Assembly: GCA_013115135.1 (NCBI GenBank)
Contig: JABANP010000292.1
Coordinates: forward strand, 1 to 64,000
Reading direction: 5' to 3'
DNA: 64,000 nucleotides
Origin: Perkinsus olseni
Lineage: Eukaryota > Perkinsozoa > Perkinsida > Perkinsidae
In this document: piece by piece, positions 3,435-57,900 of the stretch
Layout: every line of letters starts with the position of its first letter
Position numbering within the stretch: position 1 is the first letter of the stretch
The notes under the pieces: generated by a model
Told to the model about the DNA's origin: nothing
Databases searched by the model: none
The model's input: only the letters and a program-made list of their open reading frames with translations
Program-made: the position numbers and the translations under genes

Positions 3435-4929
3435 CTATTTCAGCTTCCATTCTCTCGCTATATCAAGAGCTTTGGAAAGCTTGTGAGGTGACACCCAAGA
3501 TGCTCCGAACGTCGTCAAAGTCTTATCCTTATTCTTGAACTTAGAGAGTTCCCCTGCTGTAGCTGCGGCCACTTCATCCCTCACAAAATCAATGCTTTCT
3601 CGTTTGAGGGGAATACTGAGAGAGAGCCATTTTCCCAAGCTGCGTGGCTGCCAGAGACACTCTGTTACTTGCGTACTTTATCGGCTCGTTCGACTCAAAT
3701 TCAATCGCGCCAATTACAGCACACGCTGATCTGTAGCTCCAATAGGCTGAGCCTGTGACGTATCCTGGTGACGCAAGAGGGTTGCAATGATGATACTAAT
3801 ATCGTCGTACTACTATCGATCATTCTGCAATGACATTATCATAATCACAACCGAGCCCACGTGCGCGAAACTAGTCCTTACACCTTTCAGATAGGTCCAA
3901 ATTTGCCAGGGATGAATTTCTTCCTCATCGTATACTATTGCTTCCTCGAACTCCCTCCGTACAATCCAGGCTATGACTAGCGGAGCGAAGGTCTCAGGAT
4001 GCTCGCTCATGACCTTGTTCATGACTTTGATGTCAGGTATCTCTGTTAATGTTATTCCTGTTGTTTCCAGCTCCTTGAGAACCATCTTTCCCCACTGGAT
4101 TATGGCCTCTTCGCACGACTCGCCACCGCCGATCCTATTCAGTACTCCCGCTATCGGGAGGCTTCCAGGACTGGGGAACCACTGGAGATGGACCCTTTTG
4201 CTTTGCTCTTCCACCAGCACCCATTCATCATCTTCGAGTTCAAAACGCGTTGGCGGCATCCTCTTGCTCATGGCTCTCGCTGCCCTTCAATCTATCGCAG
4301 TGAAACACTCACCCCCAAGGAGTAGCTCGATAAAGACCTACATGGTTTCCCCTAGAGTAGCATGCTATTAGGGTAGTAGTATGTCATCGACTATGCTACT
4401 GTAGCATAGTCGATGACATACTTGCCCTTTTTCTTGTCAAATTTGCCAGCGACCGAAGCTTGCCACTACACGGAGCACTGTAGGAGTTCGAATTTTTATC
4501 TCGACCGCTCGCTTAGAGGAAGTTCCTTTCCCTCACCGGCTCTATGATGCTCTCCAGTTTGCTCGTGCGGAATCCTTTGAAGTCGCTGGTCTCAAGGACG
4601 CAGTCCAAATGACTTCTAATGTGGCGCTCATCGCCTGCCACAATAACGACGAGTCCAAACAATATATGGCTATCTGCGCCAGGCCAGGTACGACATATCG
4701 ACAGGGTTTGCCAGGCAGACGACCCTCAGCCCTGACTGTGTGTGCTACACTACCCACCAGTGCGTGTAGCCCTCGGTCTCGCGGCACGATGGTGAACGGT
4801 CTGTTGAATGAGTGAGGCATTTATTCGTGCGAAACTTGTGACTTCTCAGTGAGAAGTTCTCACCTTGAACAACCTCCCCTCGATTTGAGCGGCCGAGAAG
4901 AGGATGATTGCGACTTCGAAACAGGGCAT
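3435..4929 (-). pseudogene. Secreted seven-exon protein, copy A, disrupted in exon 4
   Basis: First of three tandem paralogues (with 5976-7685 and 8161-9787). Exons on the minus strand: 4864-4929, 4758-4800, 4537-4673, 4342-4465, 3882-4200, 3677-3795, 3435-3615. All junctions are GT-AG, with the same phases as the sister genes. Exon 1 encodes a signal peptide (start MPCFEVAIILFSAAQ). Exon 5 carries the family core, with motifs LQWFPSPGSLPIAG and PETFAPLVI. Exon 6 carries the GSAYW block, and the C-terminus is REWKLK. Exon 4 is 124 nt instead of 80 nt: a 44 nt insertion that inverts the preceding sequence creates a perfect palindrome (4378-4422) and an in-frame TAG. As it stands the full protein cannot be made, unless exon 4 is skipped or the insert is spliced out. 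The function of the family is unknown. The gene has probably been inactive only briefly, because all other exons and splice sites are intact. Confidence 0.7.
4378..4422. repeat. Perfect palindrome, 22 bp arms, 1 nt spacer
   Basis: Arms 4378-4399 and 4401-4422 are exact reverse complements around a single T. The right arm is the original exon 4 sequence of gene copy A (reading minus). The left arm is an inverted copy absent from copies B and C, so this is an insertion and not an ancestral feature. Confidence 0.95.
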
Positions 4930-5975
4930 TTCCCACGGTCCCTCTTCGCCCACGGTGGGCGGACTGTTTCGCGGCCGGAAATGTGATTCTCGTGCACTGG
5001 AAATAGGTGAAGATTTTGTGCGGCGCGATTTGCGCAGCGCGGAGTGGTGGAAATAGTATTTTTCCCCAATAGCCCCGCTTTATGAGAATCATGATGCTCG
5101 AGCTGGTCCTGCACTTCGTCACTCCGTGAGTGCCAAACCGTATAGTGGTCACTTCAAGTGACCACTGTATGGGTTGGCAGTGTCGGCATTGCAACTATAC
5201 GACTGGAATCTGATTGAGTTGAAAGTGAGCGGAAGACCCTTGTACAAATGTGTGCTCTATGAGCTGCCGCTTCACAATGTGATCCCCACCCTCGCCCCTC
5301 GACAATAGCCTGTTCTCAGCAGGACTATACGCCGGGCGTGTTACTCCCGGTTATTCCTGCCAGGCAGGCGCTGCGTGCTCCTAGGCCGAAATCGTGGACA
5401 CCATGAGATGTATTTCCAGCGACTCGAGCACGAGGACGGCAGGTTGGACGGCGATACCCCGATTCCCTCTCGAGGAACTGAATTGGCACTCTCTCGAGTC
5501 GAGAGAACCCAGGGAATCAATTCACATAGATACACTGTTATTCTTTGAGTACAGCCTTCGAATCACTTAGCTGGAGATATAGGGGTCCGTCGTTTCATCT
5601 GATAGCATCGAGTGCCACTCGACGAGTGGTTATCGCTGGACGTTGCCATGCGCATGCGAGTCTGCTAAGCAGACTCTGCTCAGTAAGCCGTGCGTATATT
5701 CGATACTCGCTGCTGCTCGGCTCCGTAATGGAGGGTCACTGAATATCGGTTACTGAAAGGTGGTGCTCTCATCCGGCCTGAGATTCGCATTCCGTCATTG
5801 GTCGAGGGATCAGGCTACCATTCTGCAAGACCAAAACATTGGCCACAACGTTTGGCGCGGTTTGGCAACCTACTCGAACCCAAAAGCGACACTCTCAACA
5901 AACATTCGACACCATACATGTTCATCGTCATCGTCATTTTCTCCGGAAGTTCCAGCGACCGTTGATCGATGGTTG
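4930..5975. other. Gap between copies A and B, containing a degenerate palindrome
   Basis: No gene is supported here. The segment contains an imperfect palindrome at 5131-5179 and, at its right edge, the 3' end of gene copy B. Confidence 0.5.
5131..5179. repeat. Imperfect palindrome, 24 bp arms, 1 nt spacer
   Basis: The inner 11 bp of each arm match perfectly (AGTGGTCACTT / AAGTGACCACT around one C). The outer 13 bp carry three mismatches. This is consistent with an older, decaying member of the one-nucleotide-spacer palindromes. Confidence 0.8.
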
Positions 5976-7685
5976 CTAATGCAACTCCCATGCCTTGACG
6001 ATGCTATACGCTTGAGGAAGCTTTCGAAGTGATTGCCAGAATGTTCCGAGATTCATCAGGGACATGTCCTTCGCCTTGAATCTTTCAACTTTTCCTTTGG
6101 TAGCTGCAGCTACCTCAGACCTCACGAAATCGAGACTACTCCGCTCAAGCGGGATTCTGATCGGAAGGCGGTAGCTCGGCTGCTGTCAGGAATGTGATAA
6201 CTCACGTTATCGGCTCGTTTGAATCCGGATGAGAGAACTGAATTGAATCGATGACAGCATGACCAGCTTCATGATTCCAGTGGGCTGAGCCCTTTACATA
6301 TGCATACTTCTGAGAGATTAGAGAGAGAAGTACGAAAACACCGTATCACTCGATTATGTCACTAGATTGCAATGAGTCGTTATTATCGATCGCAGGCAAC
6401 CCGAACTATAGTCATTGAGTTCAGCCCAATGGATACCATAGATCAACCCGAAACCCCAACACTTGTCAGGGACAAGTGGTAGGGTTGGCTGAGTATTTGA
6501 GTAGTCGGACTACCGTAGTCCTCTGACTCAGAGGCTCTGAGGACAACTCAGGCAAATGCTAGCCGGATCTATTCTGCTGAGTTGAATCACGTCACTTGAT
6601 CCCATCAAGTTGACCAAGTTCAACTTGATCAACTTTATGCGATCAAGTTGATCTTGACAACTTGACAAGTTGATCCGTATGGCGCTGATACGGCCGCTTT
6701 CACCTTCCTCAGGTCTTTCCGCATCGTCCATTGATATCCTGCCTCGTTGCTGATCAGAAGCTGCTCAAAATTCTCCTGAATCTTCCAACCGATGACTAGC
6801 GGTGCAAAAGTCTCAGGTCGTGCGCTCATGAGCTTCTTCATAGTTTCCATGTCGAATACCTCGTTTTCACCCGTCTCCTTCGTCTCCCTCGCCCAGTGTT
6901 CGAGAACCTTTCTCCCCCACTGAATGATGGTCCTCTCACACGACTCATCATCAAGCATCTCATCCAGTATTCCGGCTATAGGTAGCCCACCAGGGCTAGG
7001 GAACCACTGCAGCACAGCCTCAGTGCTGAGAGCTTCCTCATTGGCTTCGTCCTGGGCTCTCACCGACACCGACTCATCTCGGCCCGCCAGAGCCCTTTGC
7101 ACGAACCCTGGTATTGTAATGCGCATTTGACTAAGAGCCGATGAGAATGCAATGGTTCTCGAAGCGAAGTCCTGGGCTTCAACTGTACTGTAACCTACAT
7201 TGTTTCGCCTAGAGTAGCGTAGTCGATGACGTACTTCCCTCTTCTCTCGTCGAACTTAGCGGCGACCGATGCTTGCCACTACAAAGAGTCCAGCGCTGTT
7301 TGCTTCTACGATCCCATCTCCTACAGGCTTTGCTGTTCTGTCGACGGATTCGCCGGCGTAGGTGCTCTGGAAGCCCTCGAGTTCCCGGGCCTCAAGGACG
7401 CAGGGGGAATGTCCTTCAGAGCCCCTACCATTACCTGCGACACATGGCAGCGATGCTTGAGAAAGTGAACAGGAAGTCCAACACAGTGCCACACAGTCGC
7501 GTGTGGTCCCCGCCTGCTACCTGCCGATAGCCTTGACGTTAACCAGCGAAAGACCTATGGAGCAGGCGAGGGATCCTCAAGTGATAGGAAATCACAAGCC
7601 ATCTCGGCTGAAACCTCACCTTGGACGACCTTCCCTCCGCTTGGGCAGCCCAAAGAAAAAGTAGAGCAATTTCCAGGTAAGACAT
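5976..7685 (-). CDS. Secreted seven-exon protein of unknown function, copy B
   Basis: Exons (minus): 7620-7685, 7521-7554, 7325-7455, 7199-7278, 6704-7025, 6206-6309, 5976-6174. The phases close to 311 codons plus stop. The protein starts MSYLEIALLFLWAAQAEG, a short hydrophobic signal peptide. The mature part has no recognised domain. Conserved with copies A and C are the exon 3 end (ELEGF..TY), exon 4 (WQASVAAKFDERRGKYV), the core PSPGGLPIAG, CERTIIQWG and PETFAPLVIG in exon 5, GSAHWNHEAGHAVIDSIQF in exon 6, and a Lys-rich tail. One conserved Cys lies in exon 5. This copy differs in its last residues (KAWELH instead of KKWKLK). The start was chosen because it opens the signal peptide and matches the paralogues. 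A lineage-specific secreted family is inferred; no function can be assigned. Confidence 0.7.
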
Positions 7686-10381: not shown

Positions 10382-10400
10382 GCTGCTGAAATTCAGCAGC
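10382..10400. repeat. Palindrome, 9 bp arms, 1 nt spacer
   Basis: GCTGCTGAA and TTCAGCAGC flank a single A. It shares its last base with the first base of the next, larger palindrome. Confidence 0.85.
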
Positions 10401-10464
10401 AATCTCCTCCATGTCACTAGCGGTTGGCATTCAATGCCAACCGCTAGTGACATGGAGGAGATTG
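10400..10464. repeat. Perfect palindrome, 32 bp arms, 1 nt spacer
   Basis: Arms 10400-10431 and 10433-10464 are exact reverse complements around C10432. This is the longest perfect palindrome in the window. No mismatches have accumulated, so it is probably recent. Confidence 0.97.
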
Positions 10465-10977: not shown

Positions 10978-10979
10978 AG

Positions 10980-11002
10980 GGACACGGTCAATGACCGTGT
11001 CC
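10980..11002. repeat. Perfect palindrome, 11 bp arms, 1 nt spacer
   Basis: GGACACGGTCA and TGACCGTGTCC flank a single A. It follows the 10943-10977 palindrome after two bases. Confidence 0.88.
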
Positions 11003-11588
11003 GTCGGTCATGTCAGAGACACGGACCATCTCGTAGTTATGCTCGTACCGTCTGGGGTGAGTGAGTACTCGTTTTCATCGGTCGCGGGCTCAATGCAGAG
11101 CGCTCATGCAATACATGTGCCCCGATGACAAGCGCTACTTGTCTTGCTGCGGTCGTCTCGCGACCGCGAGAAATATCACACATTTACGTATTGTCACGTC
11201 AAGTATACCCCGAGTATAGCGCATTCATCTCGTTCATTGTCATCCCGAGCTGAGGAGTGGACCGATAGAGCACTTAGCAGTTCACGGACTTCGCCAATGG
11301 AATAGACTGCGGAAACATCAGATGCTACAGCGAAAGTAGATAGAACCGATCAATAGTGCGAGCGAGACCGTCAGGCTGTAGGCGACAGCTTCGCTCACGC
11401 TGTGCATCTTCCGTGCTGCACCGAGCAGATGATCCTCAGTCGTGCTAGTTCTCAGACTCGTAGCTCGTAGCAAGCATACTTCAAATCAGGTGGAAGCTTG
11501 AGTGATCCAATCTCGTATCAGGCGAGGTGACTGCACCCTATTTGATCGGAAGTGGCTGATGTAGCTTCGATATTTTCTCGACAACTAA

Positions 11589-13700
11589 ATGGCAGGGCTC
11601 ATTGGCGACTTGAGAACTTCGTTCACTAAATGGTTGCTGGTGCCAAGTCGAGGGTGCTCCTCCCTGTCGTCAGTAATGACTGCCGTTGCAGCTGGATTCA
11701 TCGGGTTCAAGGTGCTGAAGTTTGTCAAGAGGATCTTAGAGAGGACGCCCTTCCCCGGCCCAGGAGTAAGACGGCAGGCATTTTGGAGCGGCACCTGAGG
11801 AATGCTCTCAAAAGCGTCTTGACGTCTTCAGATAAGCTTCATGCTCCGACTTGCCCTGATGTCGCCCGAAGACCAATTCAAGAAGTTCTTGGAGATGCCT
11901 AAAATGTTTGGAAAGATTTGCTGTTTCAAGTGAGTGAAGCAAAATCTAACCTCTGAGCCTTGATAATTGGGTGGCTTTTGACACTCATAATATTGTAATC
12001 GTGCACTTTTCTCCCGCAGGTCCCCAACTCGTCAAGTACTGGTAGTGTCCGACATGCCCACCTACCGTAGCGTCATGAAGAGGAGACCGAGAGAGTTCAG
12101 CAAGCCCGACTATGAGAATATCATGGACGGTGTTCAAATGGCCGTGAGTGAGGGTGATATGTGGAAGAAGCATCGAAGGATATCCTCGCGACCTCTGACG
12201 GAGACCAACGTCAACAAGCTCTTGCCCATGATCACCGACACTACGCAGAAAATGGTGAGTGCAGCACTCAGAGTCACTGAAGCGGCTCATTGCGCTACCT
12301 CCTTCTCGTGTCAGATTGAAAAACTCGAAGGATCTGCTGACGAAAAAGGGAATGTTCTCTGGCGTCCGGTGGAAGACCTCCGCTTGTGTGCTTCAAGAAT
12401 CGCGTCCGCTGTCTGCATGGGCGAGGAAGATCCGACGGCCTCTGGAGGTCAGCAACTTGTATGGCGTTTTCGGACGATCTCAAATACCTTTCAGATCCTC
12501 TCTACGGCAACGAGATGCAGGACGAGCTTTGGGGCCTCATCAGAGATGCCTTCGTGGTGAGTATGAAGCCAACGCGCGTCTTCTATCACGACAGGTTTCT
12601 ATACAAGCTGATTTTCCCAGGAGTTCGACAGGTAAATGACATCGCCATCCCGGCTTTGTCTGAAGCAGTCTATTCCTCAGTTCGCGAAGCGCTTCAAGTC
12701 TATCGAGTCCAAAGCTATAGACGGGTTCCGTGCCCGTGCCGCGGTCGACCCTGAACGTCCTCGTCTCTGCAAGGGTTTGAAGGAGAGTGCGGGAAACGAG
12801 TATAGCGAGAAGGAGCTTGCGCACACTCTCATTATGTGAGCTGATTTCGCGTTGTTAGCATATGAACGCTAGATCTCTCTGCGGTACTCGCAAGTGTCTT
12901 CATATTTACGCGGAATCGACCTTGACCTCGATCGTTGCTAGCCGTTATTGGTGAAAACAAAATTTCTCAGGTATCTAGGGGGTGGTGGAGAAACTACCGC
13001 CAGCGCCGTGGCTTGGATGCTCCATGCTTTCTGTACCTATCCTGAGGTTCAGCAGAGAGCTAGAGCTGAAGCAGACTCCATTGGAGAAATAACGCCCACC
13101 TCTATTCACAGTATTCCCTACATCGAGGCATGCGCTTTGGAGGCTCTCAGAGTAAGCCTGAAAAGACGAGTCATTCGATAGACGTCTCTTCAGCTCAATC
13201 CCTCCGTGCCGATCAGCATCAACAAAGCCCTCGTCGATACCGAAGTGGCCGGGAAAACCGTCAAGGCCGGCACTCAACTTATCTTCCTGGTCGGCCAGAT
13301 GATGAGGGAGAACTACGACGAGGGAGATAAGTTCATGTAAGTGCCTCTCAGAGTCCGCTGTTAGAGTACTGACTCTCACACTCTCATTATGAGAGTCTCA
13401 TAGTATGCGCGATTCCAGTCTTTGGTCAGGCCTGAACGTTGGCTGTCGACCGATGGTGCTTCGATAGACGTGGAGAAGCGTTCTGAGTTCATCGCATTCG
13501 GCTTCGGTCCAAGACAGTGCCCCGGGAGATTCCTAGGAATCGCAGAGATCATCTGCAGTGCCGCCCTCTTCCTCCGAAACTTCAATGAATTCCGCCACGC
13601 TAAAGGTCAAGAAGGCTCTTCAATGTTCACAACTCCGCTAACGACTCTCCCTCAAAACTTGGTTGTAACCATGCGGTGTCGCTGCAACATTGGCGCTTAG
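11589..13700 (+). CDS. Cytochrome P450 monooxygenase, copy 1
   Basis: Nine exons: 11589-11765, 11832-11929, 12020-12254, 12315-12447, 12495-12631, 12681-12835, 12971-13151, 13194-13336, 13430-13700. All introns are GT-AG and the exons sum to 509 codons plus stop, a normal P450 length. Visible landmarks are an N-terminal hydrophobic anchor followed by the hinge PFPGPG (residues 54-59), the C-helix WKKHRR, an I-helix GGGETT (about 316-321, acid-alcohol pair E-T), the K-helix ExxR (E369-R372), the PERW motif (421-424), and the haem loop FGFGPRQCPG with ligand Cys450. The protein should be a membrane-bound haem monooxygenase working with a P450 reductase. The substrate cannot be inferred. In exon 9 only the splice site at 13428-13429 keeps the frame and restores the canonical F-x-PERW motif. 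A tandem paralogue lies at 18569-20686. Confidence 0.93.
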
Positions 13701-13705
13701 ACGCC

Positions 13706-13744
13706 TGTGAAAGGATGATCCTTTCACAGATCCTTTAAGGATCT
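13706..13744. repeat. Two abutting one-nt-spacer palindromes just after the P450 stop
   Basis: TGTGAAAGGAT/ATCCTTTCACA surround one G (13706-13728), and AGATCCTT/AAGGATCT surround one T (13728-13744). They share base 13728. They lie 5 bp past the stop codon, so the transcript could form hairpins near its 3' end. The one-base loop would have to open for RNA folding. Confidence 0.8.
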
Positions 13745-14480: not shown

Positions 14481-17247
14481 GCATCTTATAGTCATGTCGC
14501 ATCATGTCTCGTTAATGCATCGCTCTATTGTGATGACTTCTCATTGTCCCCACGTATTATGGGTCGTGCCCTAATAGTTCAACCGTTATTAGCATAGCGG
14601 TGCGACAGGCGACATCTCTTGAAGTCGGACCCCACGGCACATCCAGATTCGTCCAGGCTTCGGTAGTCCAGGTAGATACGCTCGGTATACGGACTTTAGG
14701 GGCGTATGCCTTAACTTCACTTCACAAGTTAACTCCTTTCCGAAGACTCAGTGAAATGCGTTCAGTCTGGAGGCGGGAGGATGACACCCTCAAGGTGTAA
14801 CTTCGAAAGCGATAGGAGGAGAAAAACCGTCAGACGTGGGGGTGAACGGAAATTCCCCGCGGAAAGCAGGAGCACAGTGCTCCGGGTACTCGTCGGAGGC
14901 GATTCGTCTTCCCACTGGCCCTAGAACTTAGGAACCGCTCCTCGAGGCAGGATGACAAGCTTCGTGAGGAAGGAGGTCTTCCCTGTAACCTTGTAGGCTT
15001 AGGAGCGTAAGATCCTCAATAACACTGATAAAGTCATTCGGGCAGCCAGGACCGGGCTGTTCAGTAAGAGAGCAAGACAGCGATCCTAGGATCGACCTCG
15101 AGGATCCATTTTGAAGATCGATCCAAAAAACTGGTTAAGGGAACTCTGTTCCGAACTTTTCCAGGACTGATCCCGGGACCGCTCTCGAGGAGTGTTCAGA
15201 ACTTATGAACCCGAACTCAGGATTGAACTGGAAGTTTGGAACTTATGAACTATAAATTCCGAACTTCAAGTCCAAACTTCAAGTCCAAACTTCAAGTCCG
15301 ATTCCGAGATCGATCCCAGCCCTGGGGTCTCTTTATAGTCACTTGAGATTCTCAAGTTGAGAATTTGGTAGATCTCAGCCCCGACAGTAGCCTGTGCGAC
15401 TTGTCGAAAATCGGGCTAGCTCTCGTTCGGGTTTCCTGACAGTTGATTTCCTCGTCAGTGCCTTCAATGCAAACGTCTCAGAAAACTGCAATCCTCGCTA
15501 GCTCGGACTGTCCGAAAAGCTACGTTTGTCCGAGTCGGACGTAGATTTTGGTCCGAAAAGAAACTGCAGTCTGCGTTATGCAGTCTGGGCTTTCTAGGCT
15601 CGTAGTTGTTTACTAGACTTCGATCGGTTGCCAGCTTCCTGTGACCCAGCCATGGTGACTGATATCCGGTCGTTTGTTCAGTTTGTCGGAGGCAACCTGG
15701 CGCAATGGCCAAGGCGTATCACTAGTTGCACTGTGAGCCAATACTGCAGAATACTGTATCCTACAGCATTCTGAAGTGCATTCTTCAAGCACTAAATTAT
15801 ACTGCCACCTGACTCGTACGTAATCGATAGCATTGTGTTGCAGTTGACTGGCTAGATCCCAGGGCCACGCTTACTGCTGCGCCACTAAGACTCAGCATCC
15901 TTAAAGACCATGCTTCGGTTTCACTTCCCACATCTCCTCGATGTTATCACAAACTGTGCTACAGCGACTATTATGCTTTTGCATTCCAGCCTGGAATTTC
16001 CGGTTGGGTCTCGGCATGCTCCGCGGCCGAGCCTCAGCCGATATTCTCAGGCTCCTTTGAGGGCGAGAAGACGAGACTGGGCCCCGGAGGCTTCTGCTAG
16101 CGCGAATGGGCAGCCCAGTGTGGCCTCGCATGGGCAAAGTACAAATTTCAAGGCGCCTGACAAAAATTCGAGGCACCTGTTAGTAGTAACACTCGCACTG
16201 GTTGACTCAACAACACCTGGGATGGACATAGTGATTGAGTGTAACGGGAGTCAAAGCTTCTTCTTCTATCCATTCCAGCCGACGGGCTCCAATTGTTTTA
16301 TGCAGCGAATAATGGGCGACCGAGATTGGGCGACCGAACTGTGGCAGCCTGCCACTGGCAGAAGGAAGAGAACTGTGGCAGAGAAGCGAATATAGGGGAA
16401 AAGCCCCCTGCTGGGGTTCGAACCCGGAGATCTTGCGTCGACTTTCTCTTTTTGGTTACAAACTCTTCCTCTTTCTACGTTAAGGCTGGTAGAGGTTAGA
16501 AAAGTTGACTAAGACCTGATGGAGAGCGTACCGTAACCTTCGTGAACCCGAAATCCCATGAAAAGCGCTGCGCGCCTTGTAAAACGGCCACCCGCGCTGG
16601 ATTTTTGTCATCCGCCTTGGATCTCGGTCAGAGTCCTCGGTTGGATTTTTGTCAGGTGCCTTGGATTTTGGGAATCGTCAGCCTAGTGTATTCCCTGTAT
16701 ATCGCTCGCCCACCGTTTCTAGACACTCTGCATGCCTACTGATGGACTGAGATAAGAGCTACCGCTGGCTCCATCTTGTGTTATTGTGATAATCATGCCC
16801 GACACCTGTGACCACCTAGAATCACGTTCTGTCCCGTCGTGACGTGAGCCTCACGTTATTGTAAGGAATCTCCCTATCTCCGCTCCGTTGTCTTTATATT
16901 TCGCCGACGCCCGTAGCGTGATCGATACCCTGCACTATAGCCTGTAAGTAGATCCCAAGTGCAGCACACCCACATTTACGCCCCTGTCGCGTTGCTAGTA
17001 TGGACGGAACCCTTAGAGTTATGGGCGGATATCTTCAACGTCGTGATCGAGTCGTCGATTGATACTGTAGGTAGTCGATGCCAGTGACTCTGGTAACACA
17101 ATCCCAAAGGCAATAAAGATATCAGATTATAGTTGAGCTGCTGCTGACGAGTTGGCAGACGGGCCAACGACAATCCACAAAAGAATCCACGAAAGACTCT
17201 AAATGCAATCGATCCTTTGACGCAGACACATACAAGCTGCGCTTAAC

Positions 17248-17264: not shown

Positions 17265-18568
17265 CTCGCGCCCGCCAAATACTGTCTATCTGTCTACCTT
17301 GCACGCGCGGGGCCGCACAGTCAAAAAGTTAAAAGCAGCAAGTATGGCCAAACGGAGTCGATTTACATATAGCGAACAATCGATATCTCGCAGCTAGAAC
17401 ACTGGCCAACAGGAGCGGGCAGATCCTCCTGCCACAACGTCGTGAGGCACGTCACGTCGCTCCCGAGGATAGCGCATTTGTGTTTGTGCCGTTGCACAAA
17501 GGCAAGCGCCCATTCACTGAATTGAATTCAGTGTATCTTTGTTGAATCTGCCACAGTTGAAACTGCCACAAGATGCTCGGCATGAAAGACTTACTAATTA
17601 ACCATACACTTTTCTACTTTTCCATTGTATGGCTCTTGAGTCAACCAGTGTCCCGACCGAAGCTCTAAACAATTTGTTCCAAATCCTCTGTTGTGTCGTT
17701 CGGGTGTATCAGGTGACATAGGACTCAACACACGGGAGAGACGTTAGTAACGTCACGTTACGTCTCAGACGTGCTAAGCCATCTAAAGCCTTGTCTTTCA
17801 TGGAGGAAGTGTCTCGCCTCTAGCACAGCGGAGCGAAGCGCATCATCCTCAAAGCCCGAGGTGGGGCCTCAGTGTGACATCCGGCTCGGGACAATGTCCC
17901 ACATGGAGTGGTCCCGGGGCCTCTCGGGTAAACGCTACTCGTGTAGTCTCCTTTGTCATATATGAAACTCCGAGTATATGGAGGTTGATGACGTTTGGAG
18001 CATCGGAACGTTCTGGAGGCTCACTCTGCCTTGTATACTTACGCGGTGCATGCTCCTGCCAGGAGCCTCCTGGCGTCGGCGCTGTCCCGTTGAAGAGATC
18101 ATCCGACCAGCTGCAACTGAGTTCGAGCTTTCATCTGAATACCATAACCGACCACTCTGTCATCCTTCATGCCGCCGATAGCACTGCTATCATAGCAGCA
18201 CGGGCATGTTGACCTGTACCCGACAAATTCAACAGAATCACGCGAGAAAAGTCTTCATGATGATCTGATGAACCCGCCCGGGTGCAGTGTGTCTCCCCAC
18301 ACTAGTAACGTGTACGCAGACACAAATCCCGTTTATGCTGTGTTGAACGCGGGATTTTCGTGAAGCCAAACTAAGTTTTTGGCAGCTATCGACCCTCAAA
18401 AGATTACCCGTCTCATAGATTCATAGAGGTATCAGCCCGGTGCCCTGTACTGCAGTCACGGTCCCTATGTGCGATTGATTTCTAGGCTGGACTCTCTGGG
18501 GCGCTTCGAGGCGTCATGAGGAGTACAAACACGTTGAAATCTTTACGAGATTCTCAGAAGTTGTAACA

Positions 18569-20686
18569 ATGTTTGGGCTCCTACAATCATTCAGACCCTC
18601 AGCCTCGGGGTGGCTGCTGATGATGAGTCAGAGATACGCCAGTCTGCCTTCGATCATAGCAGCTGCTACAGCTGGGCTGATAGGCCTGAAGGTTCTGAGG
18701 ATCTTCAAGAGCATTTTCGTGAAGGCACCCTTCCCCGGGCCTGGGGTGAGACAACGCTTCGAGTGCCCCGATGATGCTTGACACGGAGCTTATCTGACTG
18801 CATCTCAGATAAGCTTCATGCTTCGACTTGCTCTTATGTCAACTGAGGATACATTCAAGGAGTTCATGGCGATGACGAAGAAGTTTGGGAAGATATGCTG
18901 CTTCAAGTAGGCTGATCGATACCTGGTGAAGGCTAAGGCTGAGACCTAAGGTTCGACGGAATCTTCTATTCTGTCCGTGTAGGACTCCAACTCGTCAAGT
19001 ACTGGTAGTCTCCGACATGCCCACCTACCGTAGCGTCATGAAGAGGAGACCGAGAGAGTTCAGCAAGCCCGACTATGAGAATATCATGGACGGTGTGAGC
19101 ATGGCTACGACTGAGGGTGATGTTTGGAAGAAGCATCGAAAGATATCCTCACGGCCTCTAACGGAGACCAACGTGAACAAGCTTTTGCCCATGATCACCA
19201 GAACTACCCAGAAAATGGTGAGTGCTTGACACGGCTCACCGCGATGCGTCTCTGGTCCGATACCAGGTGAAAAAACTGGAAGAATCCGCTGACGAGGAAG
19301 GGAATATCGTATGGCATCCAGAAGAAGACCTTCGTCAGTGCGCTTCAATAGTTGTTTCGGCTCTCTGTATGGCCGAGAACGACCCGATGGCTTCAAAAGG
19401 TTATTATTGCCCTTGACGTTTCGGAAGTTCTCATTCGTCGTTTCAGATCCCCTTTACGGCGATGAAATGCAAGCCAAGCTTTGGGGTCTCATCGGAGATT
19501 CATTCGCGATTAGTATGAAATTCTCTCGCGTCTTCTACCACGATCGGCTATTGTACAAACTCATTTTCCCCGGAGTGAGACAGGTAAGCCGGGGAGTGCT
19601 TCGGATGCGACCGATCGTTCCAAGCTCAATGTTTCTCAGTTCGCGCATCGTTGGGAACGAGTCGAGTCGGAAGTGATTCAAAGCTTTCGAAGGAACGTCG
19701 TGAACGGACCCAATCACCCTCGTCTGCCTAAAAGCCTCAAGGAAAGTGCCGGCGCTGAATTCAGCGAAAAGGAGCTCGCACACACCCTCATGATGTGAGA
19801 CAACTCACCTGTTTCGGCAGAGCCGTTCCCATTGGATTCCAATGGGAGCGAATTAACGTTCCAATAATTGGAAAGTTGATCCACCGGGTGGATTCCACCC
19901 CCGTAGTTCTCTCATATGAATATGCCAACTCACTAAGTTGAACTTACATTTCTCAGGTATCTTGGGGGTGGCGGAGAAACTACCGCCAGCGCCGTGGCTT
20001 GGATGCTCCATGCTTTCTGTACCTATCCTGAGGTTCAGCAGAGAGCTAGAGCTGAAGCGGACTCCATTGGCGAAATAACGCCTACCTCTATTCACAGTAT
20101 GCCCTACATCGAGGCATGCGCTTTGGAGGCTCTCAGAGTAAGCCTGAAAAGACGGGTCATTCGATAGACGTCTCCTCAGCTCAATCCCTCCGTGCCGGTC
20201 AGCATCAACAAAGCTCTTGTCGATACCGAAGTGGCCGGGAAAACCGTCAACGCCGGCACTCAACTCATCTTCCTGGTCAGCCAGATGATGAGGGAGAACT
20301 ACGACGAGGGAGACAAGTTCATGTATGTGCCTCTCAGAGTCCGCTGTTACACTACTGACTCTCACACTCTCATAGACTATGAGTCATAGTTTGGGATATT
20401 CCAGTCTTTGGTCAGACCTGAACGTTGGCTGTCGGCCGATGGCAGTTCGATAGACGTGGAGAAGCGTTCGGAGCTCATCGCCTTCGGCTTCGGTCCAAGA
20501 CAATGCCCGGGAAGATTCCTAGGAATCGCAGAGATCATCTGTAGCGCCGCCCTCTTCCTACAGCACTTCGACAACTTCAGCTTCGCTAAAGGCCAGGGTG
20601 TCCCTCCGAAGTTCTCTACTCCGTTAACGACTCTCCCTCAAAACTTGGTTGTAACAATGCAGTGTCGCTGCAACATTGGCGCTTAG
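18569..20686 (+). CDS. Cytochrome P450 monooxygenase, copy 2
   Basis: Nine exons: 18569-18745, 18809-18906, 18983-19217, 19267-19399, 19447-19583, 19640-19794, 19957-20137, 20180-20322, 20416-20686. Every exon has exactly the length and phase of its counterpart in copy 1, again giving 509 codons. The same landmarks are present: the hinge PFPGPG, GGGETT, ExxR, PERW and FGFGPRQCPG. The copies differ clearly in exons 1, 2 and 4-6, in the last part of exon 9 and in most introns. Exon 3, exons 7-8, most of exon 9 and the 42 nt intron 7 (two differences) are nearly identical, which suggests partial gene conversion. Intron 1 carries an inverted copy of the exon 2 acceptor region. Both copies look functional. 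Confidence 0.93.
18787..18815. repeat. Inverted repeat spanning the intron 1 acceptor of P450 copy 2
   Basis: Arm 18787-18797 (AGCTTATCTGA) is the reverse complement of 18805-18815 (TCAGATAAGCT), which contains the CAG acceptor and the first bases of exon 2. The spacer is 7 nt. P450 copy 1 has no such arm, so it was acquired after duplication. In pre-mRNA it could hide the splice acceptor in a hairpin. Confidence 0.8.
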
Positions 20687-22090: not shown

Positions 22091-22560
22091 TTCACTTACG
22101 GGCCGTAGGCTACGGGCCGTAACCAGACCTAAGTTAGGTCACCTAACTGGGAAAATGTGTACTCAAATCATGTAACGTTGGGTTGAAGTTCAACCGTTGA
22201 ACCGTGGCATGAAATTGTTGTTATATTTGTAGAAGCTGATTGGTACCGAAATGCAAGCGACTGAGAAATGAGACGCAAACAAACGCTCAGTCGAATGATA
22301 TTATCTGGGTCTTACTGGGAGGTCTTTCGTAACCCGATCTACGTTACCCGATCTTTCGTGAATCGCCAGTCTGGAATTCCGTGGCCTTACCTTGCGCCAC
22401 TCCCGCCATTTCGCCTAGGCATCCTTTTTCTTCGAGCTCCTTTTGATATGCGTTTACAGCATTGCCTTTTGACGTGTGACCCCGCGGGAGTAGTTGAAAC
22501 AACTGATTCGAATCTAGACTATAGAGTCCAGAGCGGAGTCTTCTCGAAAGACCATGATGA

Positions 22561-22601
22561 TCTGACCATCTGAGTATCAAATTGATACTCAGATGGTCAG
22601 A
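22561..22601. repeat. Perfect palindrome, 20 bp arms, 1 nt spacer
   Basis: Arms 22561-22580 and 22582-22601 are exact reverse complements around A22581. Imperfect pairing continues outward for about 10 bp (ACCATGATGA against ATATCATGGT). Confidence 0.95.
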
Positions 22602-27981: not shown

Positions 27982-28024
27982 CGATAGCATGCCGACTATA
28001 AAGTTTATAGTCGACATGCTATCG
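27982..28024. repeat. Palindrome, 21 bp arms, one mismatch, 1 nt spacer
   Basis: Arms 27982-28002 and 28004-28024 pair around G28003 with a single C/T mismatch. Confidence 0.93.
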
Positions 28025-41200: not shown

Positions 41201-41430
41201 ACGACGACCAGCCTCCTGTTTTGTTGATGGATTGGAAAACCGCGTCGGAACGCGTGGGAGGAGAGGAGGTGGTACCGTGGCTAAGTCCAGCTCGAGTCGC
41301 GCATATCTTCAACAGGTTTTTCAAAGTGGATAATGACATAGGCCGGATAGGTAGAGTCATGACTCATGAGCGATTTGGTCGCTTGAAGCGACTCGCTTCG
41401 ACAGGGCGTAGGGAGGAGGCAAGGATGTGA
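41201..41430 (+). CDS. Possible terminal exon of an unknown gene
   Basis: After an acceptor (TTGGTCTCAG) the frame reads DDQPPVLLMDWKTASERVGG, then VPWLSPARVAHIFNRFFKVD, then a basic tail ending in REEARM and a stop. It has a protein-like composition, but I could not find the upstream exon. The opposite strand is also open here, which lowers confidence. Confidence 0.3.
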
Positions 41431-41942: not shown

Positions 41943-42871
41943 GATGCGATCATGATGATGGAGGAGAGAAGGAAACGAGACAACTACAGCTCCCCACTTC
42001 GTGCTAATCGAGAACGAGGGACAACGCCGCATCAGCTCTGGACTAGAACGCTGTACGTGAAGGTGAAAACGCCATCCCTCTCATGAGAAAAAGACGAGGG
42101 AATCTCGAGAAGGGGATCCGTTTACCGCACAGAAGCAAAACTGTTACACAGTTTAGACGTCGTATAGAGGTAAGCCTGTAGACAGAGACGCCGTCAGAGT
42201 GATGTTCCTTCTGACACCTCAATGCCGCTTGGGACGAAGTGAACTGTGTCAAAAAGTCCAACTGCAATAATAGCGATACTAGTCCTTCAATTAAGGCATG
42301 GTCACTTAACTAAGACGACCAATTAAGACTATCGAATGTGAACAGTAGTATCGATCGCCCAAGATACACAACTATGCGCCAAGAGACGCATCAGAGCCGT
42401 ACAGGTAACAAACAAGGGGTGCACTCATTTACCCCCTACCGGGTAGGGCCTACCCTCTCATCAGAAATTGTTTTTCAGTGGCGAGTTTACTACCTCGCCT
42501 TCCATCAAAGAACCTTTGGCGGCGGCCCTTGTGCCTGCGTGCGGCTCCTGAAGCGTACGCGCGCACAAACTTCGTCGTGCGCCGCATCACATTGATGACT
42601 CAGGCTGGTTCGGAGTTGCCTACCTCGCTCTCATGTTCTCTCGCCATGTCGTAGGCGTGCTCGCCATGGTCTTGTTTTCTGCAAGGTTCAAGTGATTTAC
42701 CATTGATCTGCGCATACGTTATTGAGAATAACTTCTCCATTATCCTTCTGTTACCCGGGTTACACTTCCCGGATTCGACAGATTCCACCGACGGCGATCG
42801 TGCCTGGCGTGACCTCATCTCATCAGTAGTTCGATTGAGAGGTCTTTAAGAAAAGCAGTTGTCGTTTTAAG
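41943..42871. other. Intergenic stretch before the cysteine-rich peptide cluster
   Basis: Nothing supported; short overlapping frames only. Confidence 0.4.
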
Positions 42872-47325: not shown

Positions 47326-47358
47326 TCCGAACTAATTGCGAATCGCAATTAGTTCGGA
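47326..47358. repeat. Perfect palindrome, 16 bp arms, 1 nt spacer
   Basis: Arms TCCGAACTAATTGCGA (47326-47341) and TCGCAATTAGTTCGGA (47343-47358) surround a single A. Confidence 0.93.
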
Positions 47359-48414: not shown

Positions 48415-49160
48415 CGGTGCTATTCTACACAATCATGAAGAATCTCCGCAGTAATTGCTCTGGGTGAAGTAAGCAAAAACTAACAGTTTCATTTGAGTCA
48501 CGACCGGTGGATCCATACCGGTATCACCGCGTATCGGCAACTTGCCGTTGCTGTTGTCCGCGCAGATGACTGCCCGAAAGGCCGCTCGGGCCCCTGCGTT
48601 TCTCACCCTCCCTATTTTATTGCTATTTTCTATTCTCTCGCGGCGAGAGTCTCGCCAGCAGCCAACAAGGCTGAAACTTTCTAGTGAATACACGTCTGTA
48701 TCATTCGATGACTCTTTCTGTCATTAGGGCCATTCTCGAGGCCGCTTCGAGTTGAGTATTTTGCCGGGGAATTCCCCCGAGACGCCAATCTCTAGGCGGA
48801 AGCAAAGCTTACGCTAGCCCGAAGAGGCACGCATGGGCACGCTGCGTGCACGGCATTAAAAACTTGGTAACATTCATGAGACCTCGAGTAAATAATGCTG
48901 AGTCAGCATCATGCAAGTTTGAGGAATGTCTCTACGCGCTTGGACCTGGAGCCTGCAGACTGGAGGCACTGCATCCAAGTCTCCGTCAGCATTTCTGACG
49001 TATGAGATCTGGGCTTATGAGAAACTTCTATGAGTGGCCTGTCCGAGAGTACCTCTCATGGGCTCAGCGCCCAGTGTCAGCAACAAGCTCGAATCAAATC
49101 GGGCCTCATCCGTGTTTCCCACGCCACCGTCCATTTGTTCAACTAATAGCCGATAAACGA

Positions 49161-49211
49161 GCAGAGTTGCGATGAACTCTGTGATCATCACAGAGTTCAT
49201 CGCAACTCTGC
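49161..49211. repeat. Perfect palindrome, 25 bp arms, 1 nt spacer
   Basis: Arms 49161-49185 and 49187-49211 are exact reverse complements around C49186. Confidence 0.96.
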
Positions 49212-49216
49212 AACTC

Positions 49217-49241
49217 GGCCACTCGTAGTCTACGAGTGGCC
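49217..49241. repeat. Perfect palindrome, 12 bp arms, 1 nt spacer
   Basis: GGCCACTCGTAG and CTACGAGTGGCC surround a single T, 5 bp after the previous palindrome. Confidence 0.9.
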
Positions 49242-52348: not shown

Positions 52349-53530
52349 TGGTGCTGTTTCACACGTTCATAAAGTATATCGGTGGACATAGACTTTGTTG
52401 GCGACGTCAAGTTGCTCCTGGTGAAGCAAGTAACGAGCAACAGTTCCGTTTGAATCACGACCGGTACACGCTTTGTTGTCTAGTGTAAGGAATACTGTCG
52501 TCTGAGCGGATGACCGTCCGATAGTCCTTGCTTCATCGAGCTTCTGTTTTTCGCCCTTCTTGATTTTCCTAACTTTTCGTCAACAGCCAGCAGAGTTGAA
52601 CTTTTCTGGTGGATATACGTCTGCATCATTCGATTATTCTTTCTGTCAGTAGATCCGTTCTCGAGCCCGCTCAAAGTTCAGTATTTCTACGGGAACTTCT
52701 TCCGAGGCGCCAACTCCCTCATGCGTACTAGTCGTGCTGTACAGGCATGTTGGTGACGCGATAGGTTACATTTGAATCCAATGTAACTCAACTTATTATT
52801 CCAATGTTCGAATCGCTGTGCTTCTGAGCCGATTCTGTCTTCACCTTTGTTGTACCAGATGATATGTGCTTTATGCGCAAAGTTGATCGATTGCATATAG
52901 CGTTTGAGGTTCTTGCGATAGAAGTAACAGGCTCCTTCCAGATTGCCTTGTCGCGTTCTGTCCAGTCACGAGGAGCTACGTAATACGGAGAGTATGAAGC
53001 TGATGCTGAACAGAAAAATTCGAGGTACGCGTGGGCCCCAGCGTGCTGGAAAATACAATCAAAGTGACTTCAAGTACAGGAGACGAGCGAATAAAATTCT
53101 CCTGGGGCCTATTTCAAAATTCCTTTCAAGGAAGCATTCTCGAGCTCCTTGCGCATGAAACCGCCAAAATTGGCCATGACCGCCTTCAAAATCCTCCTTT
53201 GCGAACCTTAGGGAGAGTCCTTTGAATATACATGGGCAAAATTACGGTTACGGTCCGTAAATTGATAAGAACGTTTACGGGTTCGAAAGCCGTACCGTAC
53301 CGAGTAACTCGGTCCGAGTTACGGTACCGTAAAAGCGTAGAACGTGTATCGCACGCTGGCGAAGCGAGGTTCATTGAAGTACCCCATTGCACGGCGCGCA
53401 ACGTCTCTCCGAGAGACTCTCTCGTATTGTTGATGTGACTACAAACTTGTGACTCCAAGTTGTAGTTGAGTTCGATGTCGGAAGCTATTCTGAGCCAGTC
53501 CACCATAAAGGCTTTAACCGTTTATTAACC
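52349..53530. other. Shared 3' flank and left flank of the hAT element
   Basis: The 3' flank of peptide 5 runs to about 52720. Around 53230-53340 there is a dense run of TTACGG/CCGTAA motifs, typical of subterminal transposase-binding repeats of the hAT element that follows. The left terminus itself is not defined. Confidence 0.45.
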
Positions 53531-55110
53531 ATGTCATCTGCTTCGCGCAAGCGACCCACAAGCCTGGAGAAGCATTTCCCGAAGTGGCGCAGAGTCGATC
53601 CCATGGAGGGTGAGGGCGAAGAGGTTCCGATGGCAGAGTGCCCTCGTTGCTTCAAGAAGATCAAAATGAATCGCGGCAGCTTGAGTGGTGTAAGGGCGCA
53701 CGAAAAATCCTGCACTGTTCGGGAAGCTGAGACCGAGGCGGAATTCGAAAGGGTTTCGAAACAAGAAGGAGCGCGAACTTTCTCTCTCGAAACCCTTATC
53801 GAGCTTGTGGTGGAGGCTGGTCTTCCCTTGAACGTGGTCGAGAACAGTGCATTTCAAAAGTTCGTGAAGTCCTTATGCGTATCGTTTGTGATGCCCTCTC
53901 GGCGTTCACTCGCCCGAGAGATCAAGAAGAAAGTCCATCATCACAGTCAGGCCATCACAGGTGAGAAGCATCAGTCGTACTTTCTGGTACTTTTTCGTCT
54001 TCAGATGAGCTGAGCAGCATCCCAGATATCGGCATCACTTGTGATGTTTGGTCACGAAGCTCACGAAGCTCATTCGTTGGTATCGTAGCTCACTTCTATT
54101 CCGATGCCGAAGGCCTCGGACGACGCCTAATCGACTTCGTAGACCTCAAGGGAAGGCATACCGGTGCTAATATTGCATCATGCATATACACCTCGTTGGA
54201 AGCTGCGGGTTGCTTGGGGAAGATACGGTCCATCACCACGGATAGCGCCAGTTCCAACTTTCGCGCTATGGACCTACTTAGAACTGAGTATGGTATGGGG
54301 GAGACTGGATTCGTGCACTTGACTTGCTTAGCGCATAAATTACATCTGAGTATCGCCAATTCGCTCGGCTTCTGGGCGACGGCTTCCACCAGCGATGAGT
54401 TCAGTGATTCCGGAGAGGAGGACGCAGGCGATAATGCACTGACGTCAACAACAGGGTTGGAAGCACCTCTATGTGAACAGCAGGAACGACTAGACTTGCT
54501 CCGAGACGAGCAATTCCTCGCTGGCGACGACGACGACGGGTCCGAGGCATCTGCTGATATTGACGACTCCTACGACGAAGCCTGGAGAGAAGATGTGGAT
54601 CGGAGTACAAATAGATCGACCAAAGGCATTGGGAGCCTCTTGAAGAAGCTCCGTAATCATAGCCGCTTCATTAGACAATCGAACATCGCGTTCGATCTAC
54701 TTCACCAGTCCGTGGAAGAGTCCCTCCGTGATGCTCATAGGTTCCGGATCATACCTAGGGATGTGGTGGTGCGCTGGAATAGTACCCACAAGTTGTTATC
54801 GTGGTTCTCTACATATAGGGAGGGGTTCGCAAAGTATCAGCGGCAATGTTTGGCTCGTCGTGGTTCGGACAAACTTCGCCTGTACATGAAGGCTAACGCC
54901 TTGTCTCCGTCAGATGAGGAGCTAATCGATACCTTGCAAGATCTTCTTGCTCCATTCGAGCAGGCCACCAGGAAGTTTTCGGGGTCTACATTTACCACTA
55001 TATCTTCTGTAAGGGCAGTTACTCGAGGGTTGAGTCGGAAGCTTAAGACTGGTGCAAGCGGAGAAGCTGACGGTTCAAAGGCTTTGAACCGTCAGCTTCT
55101 TGAGCTTTAA
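53531..55110 (+). mobile_element. hAT-superfamily transposase gene, 3'-truncated
   Basis: Two exons, 53531-53960 and 54005-55110, join in phase to 511 codons. The N-terminus has a BED-type zinc finger (ECPRCFKKIKMN ... RAHEKSC, about residues 37-61). RNase-H-like fold motifs follow: GITCDVWSRSSRSSFVGIVA with the first catalytic Asp, SITTDSASSNFRAM with the second, an acidic insertion, and RWNSTHKLLSWF. The hAT C-terminal dimerisation domain is absent, and full-length hAT transposases are usually over 600 residues. The reading frame ends inside a perfect palindrome (55062-55100), whose right arm supplies the last codons. The protein is therefore probably inactive. The element is inserted between cysteine-rich peptides 5 and 6. 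Confidence 0.85.
55062..55100. repeat. Perfect palindrome, 19 bp arms, 1 nt spacer, at the truncation point of the transposase
   Basis: Arms 55062-55080 and 55082-55100 are exact reverse complements around G55081. The left arm continues the transposase frame. The right arm has no transposase character and leads to TAA at 55108-55110. Confidence 0.96.
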
Positions 55111-57540: not shown

Positions 57541-57845
57541 CTGGGAAGAATGGAAGTGAAAACTCTGAAAGTATTGTATTTTTTCGTACCACACGATTTT
57601 TAAAATATTCCTTTGGCAGGGCGACCGCCGGTGAGAGAGCCAGCATGTACATCAAGCCGCGGGCCATGATCATGATGAGGAGAATGCTGATGGAGAAGGG
57701 CTCCTGGCCTCAGAGGTCGCCCGATGTTCTGCGTCTCTGTCGCTGTCTCGGTCACTCGAAGCACACTATGTGTCCCTCCTGGGTGAAGGAAGCCTTTTGC
57801 TAAGCACATACTTGAAAGATTGTCTACACCGAGTCAGGCCTCGGC

Positions 57846-57900
57846 GAGGCCTTCCCCTGTTATTACACCAAGACTTGGTATAATAACAGGGAAAGGCCTC
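57846..57900. repeat. Palindrome, 27 bp arms, two mismatches, 1 nt spacer
   Basis: Arms 57846-57872 and 57874-57900 pair around A57873 with two C/T differences. Confidence 0.93.

What the first reader, a model, noticed from the sequence alone, without database searches (positions are those of the whole stretch)
4378..57900. Window-wide set of near-perfect palindromes with exactly one central nucleotide
Seen directly: at least ten palindromes have arms of 11-32 bp and a one-base spacer (4378-4422, 5131-5179, 10400-10464, 10980-11002, 13706-13728, 22561-22601, 27982-28024, 47326-47358, 49161-49211, 49217-49241, 55062-55100, 57846-57900), and several more have 8-10 bp arms. Random DNA of this length should contain essentially none above 14 bp. 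The odd centre is nearly constant, although a few others have 3-7 nt spacers. A snap-back hairpin cannot turn within one base, so simple fold-back synthesis does not explain them. Template switching to the opposite nascent strand, or joining of sister ends, would. Mismatched examples (3156-3209, 5131-5179, 57846-57900) look like decayed older events, suggesting an ongoing process. Function versus mutational by-product is open.
Basis: partly seen in the sequence, partly recalled or inferred. Interest (0 to 1): 0.9.

Follow-up and report, generated by a model that had tools for sequence, protein, structure and literature searches.

The report
Scars left by departing jumping genes
The odd-centred palindromes look like repair scars left where hAT-type jumping genes inserted and later cut themselves out, and in the stretch compared such scars are the commonest medium-sized difference between two homologous contigs of what appears to be a shellfish parasite.

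Summary
In detail: palindromes with arms of 8 bp or more and a one-base centre number 44 in the window against a mean of 1.1 in dinucleotide-model resamples. The interpretation changes. Comparing the window with part of a homologous contig (C216) revealed a shorter, hidden class: insertions of exactly 14 bp with the form T1-7. rc(T1-8). T2-8, replacing a single 8-mer T. The window holds 64 at up to 2 mismatches; with a 7- or 9-base T the form is almost absent. T follows nTnnnnAn, the published Hermes target pattern. This is the expected geometry of hAT excision: 8-bp target duplication, flanks closed as hairpins with a one-base offset, hairpins opened away from the tip, ends joined on shared sequence. 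The long palindromes are read as the same scars with longer P-nucleotide tracts; 8 of 17 with arms of 10 bp or more carry the predicted half duplication. The genome holds a hAT element with 8-bp duplications and unoccupied sites. Template switching and sister-end joining are not needed. The mechanism is known; the density and the 14-bp dominance are the unusual part. Organism: most likely Perkinsus olseni.

The parts
4356..4422 (.). Long-P excision scar: half target duplication AGTAGCAT at 4356-4363, then palindrome 4378-4422 (22-bp arms, centre t)
   Evidence: Five of five paralogous sequences (L043-L047) lack the 44-bp insert and have base A at the centre position, whose complement is t. T1-7 found exactly upstream at 4356. 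The left half is even and altered (against the model).
10382..10464 (.). Two adjacent one-base-centre palindromes (9-bp and 32-bp arms) inserted between flanks that are continuous in paralogs
   Evidence: Pre-insertion sequence with GAATGCC in 4 of 6 printed relatives (L002, L004, L007, L008); L005 and L006 lack it and cannot be tested; both centres are complements of the pre-site bases. The overlap read directly is 4 bp (GAAT), not 8, so tip loss has to be assumed.
49161..49241 (.). Two adjacent one-base-centre palindromes (25-bp and 12-bp arms)
   Evidence: Left flank continues TGATG in L030 and L031; centre c is the complement of G. The right flank does not continue the left one in those copies, so this is not a simple single-site excision.
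769..806 (.). Long-P scar with T=CTCAGAAA; palindrome 782-806
   Evidence: T1-7 exact upstream at 769; other centre is comp(T8)
10980..11011 (.). Long-P scar, T=ACGGTCAT; palindrome 10980-11002, T2-8 at 11005
   Evidence: second centre T = comp(T1)
13705..13743 (.). Long-P scar, T=AAAGGATC; palindrome 13705-13729, T2-8 at 13737
   Evidence: second centre T = comp(T1)
19827..19873 (.). Long-P scar, T=CATTGGAA; T2-8 at 19867
   Evidence: second centre is A where G is predicted, a miss for the model
22549..22601 (.). One-mismatch canonical scar (22549-22570, T=AGACCATC) overlapping palindrome 22561-22601
   Evidence: three other copies at 97-99% over the 401-bp query, each with the inverted self-match; no half duplication for the palindrome itself
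5131..5179 (.). Decayed odd palindrome, no half duplication found
27982..28024 (.). Odd palindrome with 1 mismatched pair, no half duplication found
47326..47358 (.). Odd palindrome, 16-bp arms, no half duplication found
55062..55100 (.). Odd palindrome, 19-bp arms; right arm resembles a repeat; no half duplication found
   Evidence: centre predicts C, three of three repeat relatives have T (against the model)
57846..57900 (.). Odd palindrome, 27-bp arms, 2 mismatched pairs; half duplication not tested
265..286 (.). perfect canonical 22-bp scar, T=AACGTGAC
511..532 (.). perfect canonical scar, T=GTGTGATT
4842..4863 (.). perfect canonical scar, T=CTTCTCAC; C216 has T once
5608..5629 (.). perfect canonical scar, T=TCGAGTGG; 14 bp absent from C216
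6520..6541 (.). perfect canonical scar, T=CCTCTGAG; 14 bp absent from C216
8129..8150 (.). perfect canonical scar, T=AGAAGAAC
13381..13402 (.). perfect canonical scar, T=CTCTCATA
15342..15363 (.). perfect canonical scar, T=CTTGAGAA; 14 bp absent from C216
17740..17761 (.). perfect canonical scar, apparently nested in an older one (28-bp difference from C216)
   Evidence: nesting read by eye
18052..18073 (.). perfect canonical scar, T=GCTCCTGG; 14 bp absent from C216
18177..18198 (.). perfect canonical scar, T=GATAGCAG; 14 bp absent from C216
19879..19900 (.). perfect canonical scar, T=ATCCACCC
20369..20390 (.). perfect canonical scar, T=CTCATAGT
22126..22147 (.). perfect canonical scar, T=GACCTAAC
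22181..22202 (.). perfect canonical scar, T=GGTTGAAC
22984..23005 (.). perfect canonical scar, T=ATGAGCAC
25766..25787 (.). perfect canonical scar, T=GGAGGGGC
26025..26046 (.). perfect canonical scar, T=GCTTGTCC
27180..27201 (.). perfect canonical scar, T=CCCTTGAA
27763..27784 (.). perfect canonical scar, T=TCTCCGAG
41378..41399 (.). perfect canonical scar, T=GTCGCTTC
42434..42455 (.). perfect canonical scar, T=CCCTACCC
48635..48656 (.). perfect canonical scar, T=CTCTCGCC
53299..53320 (.). perfect canonical scar, T=ACCGAGTT
53403..53424 (.). perfect canonical scar, T=GTCTCTCG

Best explanation
The palindromes are excision scars of hAT-superfamily DNA transposons. An element inserts and duplicates an 8-bp target T. 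On leaving, the transposase cuts one base inside the flank on one strand and joins that end to the other strand (offset recalled from the Hermes literature), closing each flank as a hairpin whose one-base turn is the complement of the base next to the element. The host opens the hairpin some distance from its tip and copies the overhang, so each flank gains an inverted copy of itself around a one-base centre (P nucleotides). Often both flanks are opened at least 8 bases back and join on the shared inverted T, giving T1-7 . rc(T) . T2-8, a net gain of 14 bp. When they open further back and join elsewhere, the result is a long one-base-centre palindrome with the other half of T nearby. Shown here: the sequence geometry, the fixed 8-base unit, the target preference, pre-insertion states, and a hAT element in the genome. 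Inferred: the chemistry, the opening step, and that a hAT enzyme rather than an unknown one with the same geometry is responsible.
For: (1) Motif T1-7. rc(T). T2-8: at k=8, 25 perfect + 26 one-mismatch + 13 two-mismatch in 64 kb, and 19 + 7 + 17 in 200 kb of C1; one resample of each gave 0. At k=7 (up to 1 mismatch) 3 and 2; at k=9 (up to 2) 0 and 2. Twenty further window resamples gave 4 hits in all, each with 2 mismatches. (2) T: 75 of 154 places fit T at 2 or A at 7, background 0.241, p=3e-11, from 77 scars with 77 distinct T; Hermes prefers nTnnnnAn (PMC10368747 and PMC2803484, passages). (3) Window against 17.5 kb fetched of C216, 16,094 aligned columns in 5 matches kept: indel lengths 1 (18), 2 (11), 14 (14), every other length 3 or fewer; 14 of the 40 indels of 3 bp or more are 14 bp. 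Thirteen of these 14 fit the motif at <=2 mismatches, 11 perfectly, as do both 28-bp indels and one of two 12-bp indels. (4) Of 70 one-base-centre palindromes (arms >=8), 33 have the exact predicted 7-base half duplication on the other side, inside the arm or within 90 bp beyond it, against 23 of 1400 control searches; for arms >=10, 8 of 17. Thirty of the 70 overlap canonical scars, but only 1 of the 17. (5) Centre = complement of the pre-site base in 4 of 5 testable cases; second centre as predicted in 6 of 8. (6) hAT element, 2675 bp, 668-codon open frame with the hAT dimerisation domain, duplication TAGGGCTT; a second copy with near-identical compared ends and duplication CCTGATTC; unoccupied sites elsewhere. 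(7) Published Ac/Ds scars: palindromic P-nucleotide insertions centred on the complement of the base next to the element (PMC5873905, passages).
Against: No scar was matched to a resident element at the same site in a homolog. The two duplications of the element found do not fit nTnnnnAn, so the family that made the scars is unidentified. The motif also shows a weak excess at k=4 to 6 (k=6, up to 1 mismatch: 11 and 13 against 3 and 4 in one resample each; k=4: 30 and 80 against 18 and 46), and inverted repeats at other spacers are also in excess in the window; I have not explained these in full. 10400 reads directly as a 4-bp overlap; 49161/49217 joins flanks not adjacent in relatives; 55062 fails the centre test (three relatives); 19837 and 4400 fail at the second centre. 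Of the 11 listed palindromes that one search tested, 3 have an exact half duplication and 8 do not; 57846 and 3156 were not tested. One 14-bp indel (5737) does not fit. Raw reads were not seen.
Confidence: 0.9

Rival explanations
1. Replication template switching to the opposite nascent strand and back. Two switches would give X. rc. X with a one-base offset.
For: A pair of opposite-strand switches can make the same letters; pre-insertion states exist; weak excess at other unit lengths and spacers.
Against: The unit is sharply 8 bases with a symmetric nTnnnnAn preference. Switching errors have no reason for either, nor for the strong bias to odd centres.
Confidence: 0.03
2. Joining of broken sister-chromatid ends bearing one-base 5' overhangs.
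For: It also predicts a one-base centre equal to the complement of the next base. The 49161/49217 pair joins non-adjacent copies.
Against: It would give long inverted duplications, not short arms followed by the other half of an 8-bp repeat.
Confidence: 0.01
3. Another transposase superfamily, or a domesticated transposase, with 8-bp staggered insertion and one-base-offset flank hairpins makes the scars.
For: No resident element was found at any scar in the part of C216 compared; the one hAT element followed is low-copy and its two duplications do not fit the scar consensus.
Against: hAT is the superfamily whose published geometry and target preference fit, and 21 hAT dimerisation-domain matches were reported in this genome, a lower bound.
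Confidence: 0.05
4. Assembly or library artefact.
For: Reads unavailable.
Against: Scars carry mutations, one palindrome is shared by four contigs, and scars show an insertion-site preference.
Confidence: 0.01

Closest known systems
Ac/Ds excision footprints in plants, S. cerevisiae and C. albicans (PMC5873905, passages read; the works it cites I did not read)
   Same: Palindromic insertions centred on the complement of the base next to the element; hairpin flanks; joining often on microhomology.
   Different: There the longest palindrome arm quoted is 20 nt (yeast) and many different products are listed (28 in C. albicans). Here arms reach 32 and one product, the 14-bp rc(T) insertion, dominates the indels compared.
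Hermes and Kat1 (hAT): hairpins on flanking DNA, nTnnnnAn targets of Hermes (PMC10368747, PMC2803484, PMC4763223, passages)
   Same: 8-bp duplications and target pattern (Hermes).
   Different: The enzyme here is not identified with the scars.
TcBuster excision in human cells (PMC3499496, passages)
   Same: hAT-type hairpin repair with small complementary insertions.
   Different: Plasmid assay; insertions of a few bases and deletions up to 50 bp.
Excision sites found by comparing two rice genomes (PMC4423477, passages)
   Same: Natural excision scars read from genome comparison.
   Different: 94 putative excisions there, over several superfamilies of which hAT is a small part of the recently active elements, with varied deletions and filler; perfect two-copy duplications in 8 of 94. 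No uniform 14-bp product in the passages I saw.
Amoebophrya introners (PMC7789003, passages)
   Same: Alveolate genome, inverted and direct repeats.
   Different: Those are introns with 8-20 nt inverted repeats and 3-5 nt direct repeats; these scars have an 8-bp unit.

Membership tests
hAT excision footprints | 8-bp target duplication | tested here: met
   k=8 spike; 13 of 14 of the 14-bp indels
hAT excision footprints | Target preference nTnnnnAn (Hermes) | tested here: met
   75 of 154, p=3e-11
[quoted passage not shown]
   4 of 5 pre-site comparisons and 6 of 8 second centres, read by eye; built into the canonical motif
hAT excision footprints | hAT elements present in the genome with 8-bp duplications | tested here: met
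hAT excision footprints | Element seen at the scar site in another allele | tested here: inconclusive
   none seen in the 17.5 kb of C216 fetched, a small part of the genome
hAT excision footprints | Transposase-made hairpin intermediate | not testable with these tools
   needs biochemistry
Template-switch mutations | Variable length of the copied segment, no target motif (recalled) | tested here: not met
   k=8 spike and target motif; weak excess at k=4-6 noted
RAG/Transib-type flank hairpins | Even palindromes, no base at the centre (recalled) | tested here: not met
   spacer 0 with arms >=10: 0 in both samples; arms >=8: 5 against 0.7 in the window, 2 against 4.5 in C1
Introners of the Amoebophrya kind | 3-5 nt direct repeats at the borders | tested here: not met
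   8-base unit
Introners of the Amoebophrya kind | Location at introns | not tested
   genes were not modelled; a few scars were read by eye near or in introns

The most novel reading that the evidence does not exclude
In this parasite hAT-type elements leave so readily, and flank hairpins are opened so far from the tip, that insertion-and-excision cycles rather than resident copies shape the genome: scars outnumber elements by orders of magnitude, sites are hit repeatedly (nested scars), and the 14-bp gain is the main medium-sized mutation. In the boldest form the excision is a regulated, near-complete clearing of insertions, resembling programmed elimination in related alveolates but leaving scars.
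Probability: 0.2. Interest if true: 0.85.

Novelty: new variant of a known kind. Interest (0 to 1): 0.62.

Why it matters
It turns an apparent mystery of DNA symmetry into a readable record of past transposon visits. The motif can be searched without knowing the element, gives insertion preference, rough relative age (mismatches) and repair outcome per event, and lets hairpin opening and end joining be studied from sequence in a non-model alveolate. If the density holds genome-wide (107 motif copies at <=2 mismatches in 264 kb; a non-random sample; about 25,000 if simply scaled to 61.5 Mb), this lineage is an unusually rich natural collection of hAT excisions.

Tried and rejected
Bacterial-type frames, tRNA, RNA-family and Pfam searches of the window gave nothing over a cut-off. 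Introns or introners as the cause: considered because 4378 and 18787 lie at or near exon borders (by eye); dropped because of the 8-base unit and because other scars lie outside anything I recognised as a gene (by eye, genes not modelled). The repeat at about 55121-55253 was looked at as a possible source element in 10 of the copies listed; it is one edge of a longer repeat and I saw no 8-bp duplication by eye. A direct search for resident elements with an 8-bp duplication and similar inverted ends gave 3 in the window, 1 in C1 and 0 in L053; 7-base controls gave 4, 11 and 0, so none is convincing, and elements with short ends would be missed. Loss of end-joining genes as the reason for homology-based joining: not supported, since one weak Ku match (28.3 bits, cut-off 25) and one DRMBL nuclease-family match exist. 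The solved-structure search with the transposase found nothing at E 0.1. On rechecking I lowered the main confidence from 0.93 to 0.9, template switching from 0.04 to 0.03 and the other-transposase rival from 0.1 to 0.05, because the first figures summed to more than one, because the weak excess at k=4-6 and other spacers had been left out, and because programmed excision is now counted only in the novel case.
Full report
What was checked. One-base-centre palindromes are strongly over-represented: with arms of at least 8 bp, 44 in the window against a mean of 1.1 in 10 dinucleotide-model resamples, and 26 in 200 kb of contig C1 (L009-L028) against 4.0 in 4 resamples. Spacer 0 gives 5 against 0.7 in the window and 2 against 4.5 in C1; spacer 2 gives 2 against 0.7 and 2 against 2.75. 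Other spacers in the window also show a milder excess: 117 against about 45 over spacers 0-60 without spacer 1, resample means summed by hand. With arms of at least 10, the window has 14 at spacer 1, none at spacers 0, 2 or 3, 4 at spacer 5 and 3 at spacer 7.

Where the window comes from. It is contig C215 of a 61.5-Mb, 968-contig genome. A BED-finger-like frame at 53531-53962 (label recalled; no BED match over a cut-off) matches two Perkinsus olseni proteins, the best 68% identical. A transposase from the same genome matches a P. olseni protein, 93% identical over 76% of the query, whose contig length, 15,660, equals that of contig C816 here. I take the genome to be P. olseni, an alveolate (lineage) parasite of molluscs (host recalled).

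The key comparison. Contig C216 is a largely collinear homolog of the window in reverse orientation; whether allele or duplicate is not settled. I fetched 17.5 kb of its 65 kb. Over 16,094 aligned columns (96.3% identical) in the five matches kept, with overlapping paralogous matches dropped and unaligned stretches such as about 10330-10430 left out, indels have lengths 1 (18 times), 2 (11) and 14 (14); every other length occurs 3 times or fewer. Thirteen of the 14 have the form T1-7. rc(T1-8). T2-8 at two mismatches or fewer, 11 of them perfectly; the one at 5737 does not. Both 28-bp indels and one of two 12-bp indels also contain a perfect copy. Where I read the other contig it has T once. 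Eight of the 13 scars are on the window's side and 5 on C216's, so both have gained them.

The motif alone. Scanned without any comparison, the window holds 25 perfect, 26 one-mismatch and 13 two-mismatch copies with an 8-base T; C1 holds 19, 7 and 17; one resample of each gave none. With a 7-base T (up to 1 mismatch) there are 3 and 2, with a 9-base T (up to 2) 0 and 2. At 6 bases (up to 1) there are 11 and 13 against 3 and 4 in one resample, and at 4 bases (perfect) 30 and 80 against 18 and 46: a weak excess that I leave unexplained. Twenty further resamples of the window gave 4 hits at k=8 in all, each with 2 mismatches. The scars are clustered: the window has up to 10 per 4 kb but none in 32-40 kb or 56-64 kb, and C1 has 24 of its 43 in the first 20 kb.

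The target preference. The 77 scars with at most one mismatch have 77 distinct T. T at position 2 or A at position 7 occurs in 75 of 154 places against a background of 0.241 (p=3e-11). This was not used in finding them. It is the published Hermes preference, nTnnnnAn (PMC10368747 and PMC2803484, passages).

From short scars to long palindromes. If the right arm of a one-base-centre palindrome is original, T is the complement of the centre plus the next seven bases, and T1-7 should lie upstream; the mirror rule holds if the left arm is original. Of 70 palindromes (arms at least 8; window plus C1), 33 meet the rule exactly, inside the other arm or within 90 bp beyond it, against 23 of 1400 control searches. 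Of 17 with arms at least 10, 8 meet it: 794, 4400, 10991, 13717 and 19837 in the window; 8826, 22998 and 160366 in C1 (centre positions). Thirty of the 70 overlap canonical scars, so that group is not independent of the motif count; only one of the 17 does. In the 8, the second centre is as predicted in 6 (misses: 4400 and 19837; read by eye). The pre-insertion base agrees with the centre in 4 of 5 testable cases: 4378 (five of five paralogs), both centres at 10400 (4 of 6 relatives informative), the left one at 49161 (two relatives); not at 55062 (three relatives).

Mechanism. [quoted passage not shown] An offset hairpin gives X . n' . rc(X). Two such ends carrying the same T share an 8-base inverted T; joining on it gives exactly the 14-bp gain seen. 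The hairpin chemistry and the joining step are inferred from the letters.

An element in the genome. Twenty-one matches to the hAT dimerisation domain were reported, a lower bound. At C941 an open frame of 668 codons with DUF4371 and hAT dimerisation domains lies in a 2675-bp element with ends CAGTGGCGGCGC / CAGGAGCGGCGA and duplication TAGGGCTT. A second copy at C816 matches at 100% as rounded over the 319 and 327 end bases compared, with at least one base different near its right end, and has duplication CCTGATTC (the right border read by eye). Unoccupied sites exist for both (C456 and C323; C462, C72 and two at 96-97%). Neither duplication fits nTnnnnAn, so this family is evidence of hAT presence, not of authorship.

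What does not fit. No resident element was seen at any scar in the C216 sequence compared. At 10400 the flanks overlap by 4 bp (GAAT), which needs loss of the hairpin tip; at 49161/49217 the flanks are not adjacent in relatives; 5131, 22561, 27982, 47326 and 55062 have no half duplication within reach, and 57846 was not tested. These may be older or more complex repairs, or another process.

Novelty. Searches that bear on print: hAT + hairpin + excision footprint + target site duplication (4 papers), P nucleotides and palindromic excision (23 papers, 15 listed), genome-wide excision footprints, Perkinsus + transposase + hAT, inverted duplication + footprints (15 listed), and Perkinsus + transposable element + intron (15 listed). 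In these listings, and in passages of the seven papers that I opened (none in full), I saw no report of genome-wide hAT scars in Perkinsus or of a dominant rc(T) 14-bp product. Most subscription literature is not held. The kind is known; the abundance and the uniform product are what is new as far as I could see.

Noticed in passing
48211-48414, 50287-50478, 52145-52348, 55596 onward: Four copies in a row of a small cysteine-rich protein gene beginning Met-Ala-Arg or Met-Ala-His with a hydrophobic start, perhaps secreted; the fourth looks disrupted. Read by eye only.
   Followed up: no
11600-13690 and 18560-20690: Two tandem cytochrome P450-like genes with short introns (label recalled from motifs, not from a call); scars lie in what look like their introns.
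   Followed up: partly
17740-17761; homolog of 5858 in L053: Apparently nested scars: a second insertion-excision inside an earlier scar (28-bp differences), suggesting sites are hit repeatedly.
   Followed up: partly
37110-37449 and 61395-61666: Tandem arrays of 39-bp (8.7 copies) and 26-bp (10.6 copies) units, both inside stretches without scars.
   Followed up: no
49020-49400: Tandem duplication (by eye) whose junction carries the two adjacent palindromes 49161 and 49217; excision may have triggered it, as published for Ac reversed-ends events (PMC3744419, listing and abstract start only).
   Followed up: partly
window, spacers other than 1; motif k=4-6: Milder excess of inverted repeats at other spacers and of the motif at shorter units, not explained.
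   Followed up: no
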